From Pseudomonadota bacterium (GTDB lineage Bacteria; Bdellovibrionota_B; Oligoflexia; Oligoflexales; CAIYRB01), in assembly GCA_026390445.1 (NCBI GenBank), contig JAPLFX010000259.1:1-33605 (forward strand): DNA of 33,605 bases. The letters are read 5' to 3'. A program made the position numbers and the translations under genes. Below, one piece after another: positions 9,460 through 18,537 of the stretch. The notes under the pieces are model-generated. The model ran no database searches. It was not told where the DNA came from and saw only the letters and a program-made list of their open reading frames with translations. Each line of letters starts with the position of its first letter. The first letter of the stretch is position 1.

Positions 9460-10647
9460 TTAAGCCAGGTCGCGACCAAAATAACAGGCACCGGTGGCGA
9501 CCAGGCGACTCAGTAAGGTGAGGCCGTCTTGGCGCCTCTTGCCACGCGGCAGGGACTTGGCCAACTCTAGGCCTGGGTGACAGCGTTTAGCACACAGCTG
9601 CTGCACCAAGGGCAACAGGGATGGGTGCAGCACCCACTCCTCGCCATGGACGTAAAAGAACAGTTCATTGCCGATCGGTGCGAGGTAGACCATGCGTTGG
9701 GCATCACTGCGCCACAAGGCTCCATGGCCGGAGAGTAGCTTGTCCATTCGTGCTGCCGTCGGCCGCCGGGAGCCACCGGGAGCGGCAGTCAAATCGCCTG
9801 GTTTAGTCACATAGGCAGCCAACCACCGTGGCAGTAGAGTGGGATGCTGCAAGGGAGCTAGGACCATGGCTTTGAGCTTGGCCACTGCGGCTGCGGACAA
9901 TTCACCTGGATTGTCCTGCAGCGTCAGGTCGGGATCGGTATACAGGTCCTCGGACTGCAGCAATCCGGCCAAGGATTCTGGCAACTGAAATAGGTCAGCC
10001 ACCAGATCTTGCTTGGCTGGCGCGCGAAAGCCGATGGAGTAGGTCAAGCACGCATCGGCGGCGACGCCGTAGTGGGCGACTCCAGGCGGTAGGTAGAGCA
10101 TATCGCCCGGGTTCAAGACCCACGATTCCTCACTTTTAAAGCTTTTTAGCAATCGCAGATCGAGGCCAGGGCGCCAGCGCAGGTCCGGATCTCTTTGGAT
10201 CTGCCAATGGCGGTGCCCCTGCCCCTGCAGCAGAAACACATCATAGCTATCGACATGCGGACCGACCGACCCCTGCGGCGGGGCAAAACTGATCATCAGG
10301 TCGTCGGCCCGCCAGTGCGGGATAAAGGTAAAGGCATCGAGCAGTTTGGCACAGGCCTCCGACCACAGCTCGACCTGCGAGACGAGCAGCGTCCAGTGGC
10401 TTGGCGGCAGGCTGCGTAGGGTCTTTTCTTTGAATGGTCCGTGGCTGAGCTGCCAGGGCCTTTGGCCCCCCTTTTCTTGCACCAGACGGGCCCGCACGCC
10501 GTCCTCCATAGCCAGGCCGGCCAACTCGTCGACACTGATCGGATCTTTAAATCCCGGCCAAGCACCACGGATGAGCAGCGGCTTTTTTTGCCAATACTGG
10601 GCCAGAAATTCAGCGGCGCTGAGGCCACCGAGGAGCTGTTGCTTCAC
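9460..10647 (-). CDS. roxA: Cupin/JmjC-type 2OG-Fe(II) oxygenase of the YcfD/RoxA (ribosomal protein L16 arginine hydroxylase) family
   Basis: FLAQYWQKKPLLIRGAWPGF, SFAPPQGSVGPHVDSYDVFLLQGQGHRHWQIQ (HxD), NPGDMLYLPPGVAHYGVA. GTG start at 10647 preceded by gaggaataac; ORF extends to 10728. Confidence 0.85.
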   Translation of the reverse strand: MKQQLLGGLSAAEFLAQYWQKKPLLIRGAWPGFKDPISVDELAGLAMEDGVRARLVQEKGGQRPWQLSHGPFKEKTLRSLPPSHWTLLVSQVELWSEACAKLLDAFTFIPHWRADDLMISFAPPQGSVGPHVDSYDVFLLQGQGHRHWQIQRDPDLRWRPGLDLRLLKSFKSEESWVLNPGDMLYLPPGVAHYGVAADACLTYSIGFRAPAKQDLVADLFQLPESLAGLLQSEDLYTDPDLTLQDNPGELSAAAVAKLKAMVLAPLQHPTLLPRWLAAYVTKPGDLTAAPGGSRRPTAARMDKLLSGHGALWRSDAQRMVYLAPIGNELFFYVHGEEWVLHPSLLPLVQQLCAKRCHPGLELAKSLPRGKRRQDGLTLLSRLVATGACYFGRDLA

Positions 10648-10753
10648 GCTTGTTATTCCTCGTATAAACCGATTAAAAGAAGAACGGGCTTGGGCTTCAG
10701 GCGAGCCATGGCTCACCCAGGGTTCCACCGCCTCACATTAGCAAAGGCCGTCC

Positions 10754-14861: not shown

Positions 14862-16871
14862 TTAACCCTGGCGCGTCTTGGCCCAAGCGATGAAATCATC
14901 CAGGGACTCGGGGTTACCGATGGCGGCGAGGTTCACCACGGCTTCGCCATGCAGCACCTGGGTGACCGCAAGCTCGACCTTTTTGCCGCTTCGGGTGTAG
15001 GGGATATCTTGCACCTGCACCACATCCTTGGGCACGTGCCGGGGGGTAAGAGCTTGTTTGATACTCGCTTTGATTTGTGCCGTCAATGCCGGGTCGAGCA
15101 CGAGACCGGGAGCAAGCTTGACGAACAACACAATGGCCTCGTCGCCACCTTCGCGGTGCGCCACGGCAATGGCATCGACCACCGCGCTCAGTCCTTCAAC
15201 CTGGCGATATAGCTCGGCCGTGCCGATGCGCACGCCGCCTGGATTTAACGTCGCATCCGACCGGCCGTAGACGATCACACCACCGTGCGGCGTGATTTCG
15301 ATAAAGTCACCGTGCCGCCACACCTCAAGACCTAGGTCCTGAAAATAATCGAAATAGGCATGGTGATAGCGCTTGTCACCTGGGTCGCGCCAAAAGCCCA
15401 GCGGCATAGCCGGAAATGGCTGGGTACAAACAAGCTCGGCCTTGGCACCGCGAACCGACTGCGCCTGTTCGTCCCAGGCGTCGATCGCCATCCCGAGACC
15501 GGCGCACTGGATCTCTCCTGCGCGCACCGGCAAGGTCGGTGAGCCGAGCATAAAGCACGAGATGATGTCGGTGCCGCCACTGATCGAGGCCAAATGCAGC
15601 GACGACCCAGGTGCCGGCACCTGGGCGTAGAGCCAGGCAAAATGTTCCGGCAACAGCGGCGCTCCGGTCGTCAAAACGGTTTTCGCTGCGTGCTCGCCGA
15701 GGATGGAACGAACCTCCACCTGCTGACTCATACAGGTGGCCACAAACTTCGGGCTGGTCCCTAACGCGGTGACGCGAAGATCGCGCACGGCACGCCACAG
15801 CACGCCTAGATCTGGCGTGGCGACGGAGCCCTCAAACAGCACCAGCGAAGCACCGGTGGCCAGGGCCGATACGCTCCAGTTCCACATCATCCAACCGCAG
15901 GTGGTATAGAACAGCAGGCGTGAACCAGGCCCAATATCGGAATGGAGCATCAGCTCCTTTTTATGCTGCAACAGAGTCCCACCAATGCCATGGACGATGG
16001 CCTTGGGAACACCGGTCGTACCCGATGAAAACATGATAAACAAAGGATCGTTAAAGGCTCGGCCGACAAAGGTCAAGGGACGAGGTGGAGCAAGATCTAG
16101 GGCATCGTCCCACCAACAAACGGCCGCCTCCATCCCGGCAAAGGCGGCTGGCAACGCCGCAGGAGCTGGCTCAAGATGGGTGACCAGGACCGTTTTGACC
16201 ACCGTCGGCAGGCCTGCGACCACCGCTCGGGTGGCTGGCACACAATCAAACAGCTTGCCACCGTAGACATAGGCCGAGGTGCAAAACAGTACCTTGGGTT
16301 CGATCTGCGCAAAGCGGTCGCGAACAGCCGCAGCGCCAAAATCAGGCGAGCATGATGACCATACGGCGCCCAGCGAGGTCGTCGCCAACATCGCGATGAC
16401 CGCCTCTGGCGTGTTGGACATCACTCCGGCGACGCGGTCGCCTGGACCGACCCCCCACTGCTGCAAGGCTGCGGCGCAGCGCGCGACTTCGTGGCGCAGA
16501 CGCGCCAAGCTAAAGCTGCGACGCGGCGCTCCTTCCGCTAACGCCACCAAGGCCGCAGGGCGATCGTCGCCGGCAAGCAGATGTTCCGCATAATTCAACC
16601 GCGCACCTGCAAACCATGTTGCCCCGAGCATCTTGCCAGCCGGAGGCGGCGACCATACCTGGTGCGCGGGTTGCTGGAACATGATGCCGACGGACTCAGC
16701 TAGAATGTGCCAAAACGCCGCCGGCTCGGCGATCGACCATGCATGCAAGGCGCTATATGCACTTAGATCCGCACCCGCGCGTGCAGAGGCGATGCGGGCA
16801 AACCTTGCCATATGGCTATGGGTCAGTTCGTTCGCGCCGGGTTGCCAAAGGATGTCGCCGTAGGCCGTCAT
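14862..16871 (-). CDS. aacS: Acetoacetyl-CoA synthetase (AMP-forming acyl-CoA synthetase family)
   Basis: GATWFAGARLNYAEHLL, SLGAVWSSCSPDFGAAAVRDRFAQIEPKVLF, FIMFSSGTTGVPKAIVHGIGGTLLQHKKELMLHSDI, TTCGWMMWNW, YGRSDATLNPGGVRIGTAELY, GKKVELAV. Confidence 0.92.
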   Translation of the reverse strand: MTAYGDILWQPGANELTHSHMARFARIASARAGADLSAYSALHAWSIAEPAAFWHILAESVGIMFQQPAHQVWSPPPAGKMLGATWFAGARLNYAEHLLAGDDRPAALVALAEGAPRRSFSLARLRHEVARCAAALQQWGVGPGDRVAGVMSNTPEAVIAMLATTSLGAVWSSCSPDFGAAAVRDRFAQIEPKVLFCTSAYVYGGKLFDCVPATRAVVAGLPTVVKTVLVTHLEPAPAALPAAFAGMEAAVCWWDDALDLAPPRPLTFVGRAFNDPLFIMFSSGTTGVPKAIVHGIGGTLLQHKKELMLHSDIGPGSRLLFYTTCGWMMWNWSVSALATGASLVLFEGSVATPDLGVLWRAVRDLRVTALGTSPKFVATCMSQQVEVRSILGEHAAKTVLTTGAPLLPEHFAWLYAQVPAPGSSLHLASISGGTDIISCFMLGSPTLPVRAGEIQCAGLGMAIDAWDEQAQSVRGAKAELVCTQPFPAMPLGFWRDPGDKRYHHAYFDYFQDLGLEVWRHGDFIEITPHGGVIVYGRSDATLNPGGVRIGTAELYRQVEGLSAVVDAIAVAHREGGDEAIVLFVKLAPGLVLDPALTAQIKASIKQALTPRHVPKDVVQVQDIPYTRSGKKVELAVTQVLHGEAVVNLAAIGNPESLDDFIAWAKTRQG

Positions 16872-16926: not shown

Positions 16927-17844
16927 TTAGGTCTTCGCCTTCGGCCCCTTGTCCAGCCGCCTAGCTAGCTCACGCAGCCGGTCCATTCCACCCTGGCTAG
17001 TAGGCCTAGAGCCAGGCGCCGCTGCCGCTGGTGACGCTGGTGCCTGGTCCGCAGACTGCGGGATCGCCGCCGCAGCTGGTGGCGCGCGGCGCGTCGCCTT
17101 CTCCGTTGCACCATACGTCGAGGCCGCGTAGGAGCGCGGCATCGCTCCATCCGGCGGGACACTAATCCCCGCTAGCGTCGCACCCTGCTGATCAATCGCT
17201 GGTACCGCCAAGTGGCCTTGGCCAATCTGCTGCTCGGCATCGAAAAAATCCACTGGCCCGCTATGCGTGCCGCTGAGTTCTTGCAGCCGACGCGCCAGGC
17301 ACGCCGCGGTGACGCCAAAAAAGGCCGCGACCTTCGCCGGGTCCTGCAGTTTGCCGAGAGCCTTGCGCAGCATTCCCCGCGGCAACAACAAGGCGGCAGC
17401 GAATTGATCGGCCCGAGCTTCGACCTTCGCGCCGCGCGGGTCGTCATGAGCCAGCGCAGTGGCGGCGCCGTAGCGGTCCAGCGGATGAATGGATTCCTGA
17501 TACCCCGAGACTTGCCAATCGCCGCGCGCGATCAAAGGCTGAACATCCAACAGATAATGACCAAGCAAGTGAGCGAGAAGAAAGCGCTCCGCCAGAGCAT
17601 CGGCTCGTTCCTGCACGACCATCACGATGGTGAATGCGCCGCGTTCATCCTTGGCTAGCAAAGCGCCATGCATCGGCAGCGCCGTGCGCTTTAATGTCAG
17701 CCCAAAGCGTTGGATCAGGGCATCCACTTGTGGCTTCGGTGCAAAGGTTTGCGTTCCGCCAAAATACCGGCGCACCAGAATGGCTAAACTTTCGACATCA
17801 CCGGTGGCAGCGCTGGCGGCGATTTCCGGGAAAATTGCGATCAT
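16927..17844 (-). CDS. ImmA/IrrE-family protein with degenerate zinc-protease motif (HLLGH) and Ala/Pro-rich C-terminal tail
   Basis: RFLLAHLLGHYLLDVQP aligns with the IrrE/ImmA RFxxAHExGHxxL; downstream KVEARADQFAAALLLPRGMLRKAL matches the second conserved block. ATG 17844 with ggaggg upstream. Confidence 0.82.
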   Translation of the reverse strand: MIAIFPEIAASAATGDVESLAILVRRYFGGTQTFAPKPQVDALIQRFGLTLKRTALPMHGALLAKDERGAFTIVMVVQERADALAERFLLAHLLGHYLLDVQPLIARGDWQVSGYQESIHPLDRYGAATALAHDDPRGAKVEARADQFAAALLLPRGMLRKALGKLQDPAKVAAFFGVTAACLARRLQELSGTHSGPVDFFDAEQQIGQGHLAVPAIDQQGATLAGISVPPDGAMPRSYAASTYGATEKATRRAPPAAAAIPQSADQAPASPAAAAPGSRPTSQGGMDRLRELARRLDKGPKAKT

Positions 17845-18195
17845 CGACTGACCCTCCGAGGAATGATTGAGGCGCACGAACGCAAAGGGGGACAGGGGGT
17901 GGCGGTCAGAGGCAGGTTTTTTGGCCTGCAGCAGCGGCGGCGGCAAAGGGGATGCCTCTTATTGTACGACCTTTTGCCGGGAAGCGCTGCAGCGCTACCT
18001 AGCGGGCAACACGGTCCAGCGAAAAACCACCGCAAGGCGGCTTCACCACCGGTTTAGAAGACCACGGTATTATCATGTTTTGATTGAATTAATACATTAC
18101 GCTAAGGTTTTTGCGCAAGCTCCCCGATGGAGCCTATGAAGAAATTAAGTAGGCAACTTGCAGCGAGTGCTGCGTGAACAAGCTGGGAGACTGTC

Positions 18196-18537
18196 ATGGG
18201 TTTGGCTCTATTTAAAGAACGCCGCGCCGGCGACCGCAAAAGACTTACCGGGCTACTACCCGGCCGCTTGATCTTTGCTGCCAATCAGCAAGACCTCGTC
18301 TGCAGACCCACTGATGTTTCGGCGCACGGCTTAGGCGTCGTGGTGACGGGTGACAACAAGAAAATTGAGGTCGGCACGACATTGCATCTATTGCTGCCTG
18401 ATCGAATGGTGGAGATGCAGGTCGCCTGGAGTCGGCCCGACTTTGGCAAGCAGGATTCGACGCGCTACGGCATCGTCACGGCTGATGCGAGCTTGGACTT
18501 GGAAGCCCTATTCACCGCCACTGGCTGCCTCAGATAG
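18196..18537 (+). CDS. PilZ-domain protein (putative c-di-GMP receptor)
   Basis: ERRAGDRKRLTGLLPGRLIF...PTDVSAHGLGVVV has an R-rich N-terminal motif and D-x-S-x-x-G typical of PilZ; tgggaga upstream of ATG. Confidence 0.72.
   Translation: MGLALFKERRAGDRKRLTGLLPGRLIFAANQQDLVCRPTDVSAHGLGVVVTGDNKKIEVGTTLHLLLPDRMVEMQVAWSRPDFGKQDSTRYGIVTADASLDLEALFTATGCLR

What the first reader, a model, noticed from the sequence alone, without database searches (positions are those of the whole stretch)
16927..17844. ImmA/IrrE homologue whose zinc-protease motif reads HLLGH instead of HExGH
The codons CAC TTG CTT GGT CAT give H-L-L-G-H where ImmA/IrrE proteases have H-E-x-G-H. Both zinc-ligand histidines are kept but the catalytic glutamate is Leu, while the surrounding fold motifs (RFxxAH..GHyLL; ARADQFAAALLLP) are intact. 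This predicts a catalytically dead pseudoprotease acting as a binder or sensor. It carries a long Ala/Pro-rich tail and lies divergently to a PilZ gene, with no obvious Xre-type repressor partner nearby.
Basis: partly seen in the sequence, partly recalled or inferred. Interest (0 to 1): 0.66.

Follow-up and report, generated by a model that had tools for sequence, protein, structure and literature searches.

The report
Order-wide dead ImmA/IrrE-type protease family
One group of bacteria (the Oligoflexales) keeps a protein shaped like a stress-response protease, but every copy found lacks the residue that cuts; it usually sits next to a gene for making acetoacetyl-CoA, so the old protease has probably become a binding or regulatory protein.

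Summary
The 305-aa protein at 17844-16927 (-) matches Pfam Peptidase_M78, and its active site reads H92-L-L-G-H96. It is not a sequencing error. In 30 orthologues from 8 families of the order Oligoflexales, none has Glu at the catalytic position (20 Leu, 4 Ile, 3 Met, 1 each Gln/Ser/Cys). The gene is under strong purifying selection (dN/dS 0.05 over the fold). The three putative zinc ligands (His, His, Glu) remain in 23 of 30 and were lost at least three separate times. AlphaFold2 plus Foldseek confirm the fold (CapP, IrrE/PprI, PrpR); the IrrE-type GAF-like domain is absent and replaced by a disordered linker and a conserved terminal helix. No M78 protein with HExxH was found in the own assembly. 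The gene lies directly upstream of acetoacetyl-CoA synthetase in 24 of 27 loci where this can be seen, usually divergent from a PilZ gene. Best reading: a fixed pseudoprotease that acts by binding, probably as a local regulator linked to acetoacetate metabolism. Mycobacterium PrpR, a CoA-binding transcription factor of the same fold with the HEXXH residues lost, is a solved precedent. Partner, metal and ligand were not tested. New variant of a known kind.

The parts
16927..17844 (-). pseudo-M78 protein, 305 aa (P0001)
   Evidence: PF06114 45.8 bits; orthologues
17557..17571 (-). H92-L93-L94-G95-H96, the position of HExxH; catalytic Glu replaced by Leu
17419..17421 (-). E142, third putative zinc ligand (E in ExxAD), kept in 25/30
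   Evidence: assignment as ligand from knowledge of the M78 family
17380..17418 (-). ARADQFAAALLLP fold motif
17272..17340 (-). helix-turn-helix-like segment (residues 169-191), F176 and R186 invariant in 30/30
17821..17844 (-). conserved N-terminus MIAIFPEI
16948..16989 (-). conserved C-terminal helix GMDRLRELARRLDK after a disordered linker (R291 and A294 in 27/30)
17960..17967 (-). GTACAATA, a -10-like element found exactly upstream of 11 orthologues and with changes upstream of others
14862..16871 (-). acetoacetyl-CoA synthetase, 55 bases downstream on the same strand
   Evidence: TIGR01217 746.8 bits, cut-off 520.9
18196..18537 (+). divergent PilZ-type protein, 113 aa, with RxxxR and DxSxxG motifs by eye

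Best explanation
The gene encodes a member of an order-wide family of stand-alone M78 (ImmA/IrrE) proteins that most likely lost protease activity in their common ancestor and were kept for a non-catalytic job. Shown by computation: the M78 fold, absence of the catalytic Glu in all 30 orthologues, purifying selection, absence of the IrrE GAF-like domain, and a conserved gene order with acetoacetyl-CoA synthetase (AACS). Inferred: the folded part (peptidase-like plus HTH-like) binds a partner without cutting it. In most species it may still hold a structural zinc through H92, H96 and E142. The conserved C-terminal helix, on a flexible linker, docks to the partner or to a second subunit. The most likely setting is regulation of the operon it shares with AACS, that is, acetoacetate or storage-polymer use. 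Confidence: about 0.9 that it is not an M78-type protease, about 0.35 that its role is specifically tied to AACS.
For: 0 of 30 orthologues have Glu at the catalytic position, against 20 Leu, 4 Ile, 3 Met, 1 Gln, 1 Ser, 1 Cys. Canonical HExxH M78 proteins exist in the same class and are recovered by the same method (G024, G010, G025, G044). dN/dS 0.05 over residues 1-193, and no non-synonymous change in the last 22 residues. Zinc triad kept in 23/30, lost at least 3 times. Fold: Foldseek to CapP 1.4e-5, IrrE 2.2e-4, PprI 2.7e-4, PrpR from 2.4e-3. The best PDB sequence hit of the family profile is PrpR, E 0.0014, a CoA-binding regulator in which the HEXXH residues are not conserved (PMC6765138). 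Directly upstream of AACS on the same strand in 24 of 27 loci where the neighbour is visible. A promoter-like element of its own is conserved. The own genome's other two M78 proteins also lack the motif.
Against: AACS is near-universal in the order, including genomes without this gene, and in family f8 PilZ and AACS lie on either side of two methyltransferase-like genes with no M78 gene; so the neighbourhood may be inherited rather than functional. Three orthologues are not next to AACS (G010, G013, G021). In PrpR the CoA pocket needs the GAF-like domain, which is absent here. No metal, ligand, partner or DNA binding was tested. The fold model rests on 9 sequences (mean pLDDT 70; about 70-95 over the folded part).
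Confidence: 0.6

Rival explanations
1. It is a stand-alone transcription regulator of its own operon, binding DNA through the HTH-like segment, with an acyl-CoA or metal as signal (a reduced PrpR/RamB-like regulator).
For: HTH-like segment with invariant F176 and R186; PrpR is the best PDB sequence relative; adjacent gene makes an acyl-CoA; divergent PilZ-M78 intergenic region.
Against: An HTH-like segment also occurs in the protease PprI, where it is partly buried (PMC10904395); no XRE-type DNA-binding domain was found; no GAF-like domain to complete the CoA pocket; among shared 8-mers upstream only a -10-like element stood out.
Confidence: 0.2
2. It is a decoy or inhibitor that competes with an active M78 protease for an XRE-type repressor, or binds such a repressor itself without cutting it.
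For: A non-proteolytic mode is reported for the M78-type protein Rir of Streptococcus thermophilus (reported in PMC7907104). CapP and PprI are the closest folds and both act on repressors.
Against: No active M78 protein was found in the own genome (three hits, all without HExxH), and no repressor gene travels with it.
Confidence: 0.1
3. It is still an active hydrolase with an altered catalytic base.
For: Zinc triad kept in 23 of 30.
Against: The replacing residues are mainly Leu, Ile and Met, which cannot act as a base; the position varies among non-acidic residues; the ligands themselves are lost in three lineages while the gene stays intact. HEXXH is stated to be essential for IrrE activity (PMC7907104).
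Confidence: 0.04
4. A decaying pseudogene or a sequencing error.
For: None beyond the missing residue.
Against: Open reading frame in nearly all orthologues, dN/dS 0.05-0.15, and no Glu in any of 30 genomes.
Confidence: 0.01

Closest known systems
CapP (CBASS-associated M78 protease, PDB 7t5t)
   Same: Best Foldseek match, E 1.4e-5, and best PADLOC match, E 1.1e-12 over residues 40-191.
   Different: CapP is an active protease that cuts the repressor CapH (PMC10904395). Here the catalytic Glu is absent and no CapH-like or CBASS gene appeared among the neighbours scanned.
IrrE/PprI of Deinococcus (PDB 3dti, 8sln)
   Same: Peptidase-like domain plus HTH-like segment; the histidines even carry the same numbers as in D. 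geothermalis PprI (His92, His96).
   Different: Glu93 is Leu93; the GAF-like domain, needed for ssDNA binding in PprI, is absent.
PrpR/RamB (ScfR) regulators, Mycobacterium tuberculosis PrpR (PDB 6cyj, 6cz6, 6d2s)
   Same: M78-like fold with the HEXXH residues lost; linked to short-chain acyl-CoA metabolism; best PDB sequence match of the family.
   Different: PrpR has an N-terminal DNA-binding domain, a GAF-like domain and a 4Fe-4S cluster; none of these is seen here.
ImmA-type proteases of integrative elements and phages
   Same: Same Pfam family.
   Different: These work with a neighbouring ImmR-type repressor and have HEXXH (as in TnSmu1, PMC10233336); neither is present here.

Membership tests
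Pfam PF06114 Peptidase_M78 (fold family) | Profile score above gathering cut-off | tested here: met
   45.8 bits vs 22
Pfam PF06114 Peptidase_M78 (fold family) | M78 fold | tested here: met
   AlphaFold2 model matches CapP, IrrE, PprI and PrpR
Catalytically active ImmA/IrrE protease | HExxH with catalytic Glu | tested here: not met
   HLLGH; 0 of 30 orthologues have Glu
Catalytically active ImmA/IrrE protease | Zinc ligands His, His, Glu | tested here: met
   Residues kept in this protein and in 23/30; lost in 7/30. Metal binding itself not tested
Catalytically active ImmA/IrrE protease | Adjacent XRE-type repressor substrate | tested here: not met
   None among the neighbouring genes scanned with Pfam
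IrrE/PprI | C-terminal GAF-like domain | tested here: not met
   Residues 194-283 predicted disordered
CapP/CapH | CapH partner and CBASS genes nearby | tested here: not met
   Conserved neighbours are AACS and PilZ; no Pfam match of that kind near the gene
PrpR/RamB (ScfR) regulator | N-terminal DNA-binding domain, GAF-like domain and 4Fe-4S Cys motif | tested here: not met
   Single PF06114 hit in the protein; no C-X2-C-X4-C motif in the sequence
PrpR/RamB (ScfR) regulator | Binds CoA or acyl-CoA | not testable with these tools
   Needs a binding assay

The most novel reading that the evidence does not exclude
A new regulatory class: a pseudo-M78 protein without separate DNA-binding or GAF-like domain that works as a metal- or acyl-CoA-responsive binding subunit controlling acetoacetyl-CoA synthetase (protein or operon), possibly coupled to c-di-GMP through the divergent PilZ gene.
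Probability: 0.2. Interest if true: 0.65.

Novelty: new variant of a known kind. Interest (0 to 1): 0.47.

Why it matters
ImmA/IrrE proteins are usually annotated as proteases that cut repressors. This is an order-wide, chromosomal subfamily in which the catalytic residue is gone and the gene is linked to a metabolic enzyme instead of a repressor. With PrpR/RamB it suggests that the M78 fold has been reused for non-proteolytic roles near acyl-CoA metabolism more than once. It also warns that PF06114 hits should not be called proteases without checking the Glu. Species that keep the zinc site and species that lost it exist within one genus, which makes the role of the metal directly testable.

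Tried and rejected
Relatives in plasmids and phages: none at E 0.01. Viral contigs: two weak partial matches only, not followed. No orthologue in the 15 genomes of the same class outside the order. Literature searches for ImmA/IrrE pseudoproteases found no described equivalent in the open library; a review of inactive metallopeptidases does not mention M78. Co-occurrence with AACS across genomes is uninformative because AACS is near-universal in the order. I suspected hidden, more divergent orthologues between PilZ and AACS in family f8; two methyltransferase-like genes sit there instead. No shared operator-like word stood out upstream besides the -10-like element. The short motif MIAIFPEI was one of the search patterns, so its conservation was judged only on the pattern-free searches.

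Full report
Observation. The ORF at 17844-16927 (-) encodes 305 aa. The segment at 17571-17557 reads CAC TTG CTT GGT CAT, H92-L-L-G-H96. Pfam finds only Peptidase_M78 (45.8 bits, cut-off 22). The rest of the M78 pattern is intact: RFLLAH, GHYLL, ExxAD (E142, D146) and FAAALLLP.

Conservation. All six genomes of the genus carry the gene. Across the order 30 orthologues were found in 43 genomes, covering 8 of 11 families, and none in the 15 other genomes of the class. Record L011 is titled 'Oligoflexales bacterium' and its match has the same coordinates as G017 C579, which the tool lists as 'same order', so the order is Oligoflexales (inference; lineage). In the alignment of all 30 the catalytic position is Leu 20, Ile 4, Met 3, Gln 1, Ser 1, Cys 1, and never Glu. 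H92 is kept in 25, G95 in 30, H96 in 26, E142 in 25. The full triad is kept in 23. A tree needs three changes between triad kept and triad lost, all forced by well-supported branches: the G001/G003 pair in the window's own genus, genus g21, and G009. The simplest reading is that the catalytic residue went first, in the common ancestor, and that the metal site is being lost piecemeal.

Control. The same method finds canonical HExxH M78 proteins in the class (HELGH in G024; HELFH in G010 and G044; HELAH in G025), so a missing Glu is not an artefact of the alignment. The own genome has three M78 hits. The other two (L002, L003) read KELFKH and KAMAHH, so no competent M78 protease was found in this 93%-complete assembly. 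This speaks against a decoy role towards an active relative.

Selection. Between the window gene and its 95%-identical orthologue dN/dS is 0.12 overall, 0.05 in the fold (residues 1-193), 0.18 in the linker, with no replacement in the last 22 residues. The gene is under purifying selection.

Structure. AlphaFold2 from 9 sequences gives mostly confident blocks for residues 1-190, disorder for 194-283 and a helix at 285-298 of moderate confidence. Foldseek matches CapP, IrrE, PprI and PrpR. The folded part is therefore the peptidase-like plus HTH-like unit. [quoted passage not shown]

Neighbourhood. The gene is followed on the same strand by acetoacetyl-CoA synthetase (TIGR01217, 746.8 bits) in 24 of 27 loci where the next gene is visible; in G017 the synthetase and the tail of the gene lie together on another contig. 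Exceptions are G010, G013 and G021. The divergent PilZ gene is conserved in most loci; in four genomes of the genus a glycosyltransferase-like gene lies between. A -10-like element GTACAATA upstream is shared, consistent with one promoter for the pair. Caution: in family f8 PilZ and AACS lie on either side of two methyltransferase-like genes with no M78 gene, so the order of genes alone does not prove a shared function.

Mechanism. What is shown is the loss of the catalytic residue, the fold, the selection and the gene order. What is inferred is action by binding. M. tuberculosis PrpR provides the precedent: an IrrE-like fold with the HEXXH residues not conserved, CoA in a cavity, control of propionate genes (PMC6765138). 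The family profile finds PrpR as its best PDB sequence relative, weakly (E 0.0014). A second precedent for a non-proteolytic mode is Rir, reported in PMC7907104. Because the GAF-like half of the PrpR pocket is missing here, CoA binding at the same site is uncertain, and partner binding with a structural zinc in most species is the more cautious reading.

Verdict. It is a new, order-restricted, probably non-proteolytic branch of a known fold family, with a plausible but unproven link to acetoacetate metabolism.

Noticed in passing
L002 727-1770 and L003 835-1794 (own genome G000:C141 and G000:C82): Two further M78-domain proteins with a long N-terminal part that Pfam does not identify; their sites read KELFKH and KAMAHH. 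The first is a mirror image of the window protein: Glu kept, first His lost. Relatives are widespread in the order.
   Followed up: partly
window 17960-17967 (-): GTACAATA, a -10-like element conserved upstream of orthologues across the order.
   Followed up: partly
L174 2511-4154; L175 2890-4596: In family f8 two adjacent methyltransferase-like genes (they look like CmoA and CmoB) occupy the place between PilZ and AACS.
   Followed up: no
G024 (loci L046, L104-L111): One genome of the order carries eight M78 hits, nearly all with canonical HExxH, an unusual expansion.
   Followed up: no
window 9460-10728 (-): JmjC/ROXA-like protein (PF08007 with ROXA-like winged helix), a likely ribosomal-protein hydroxylase.
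   Followed up: no
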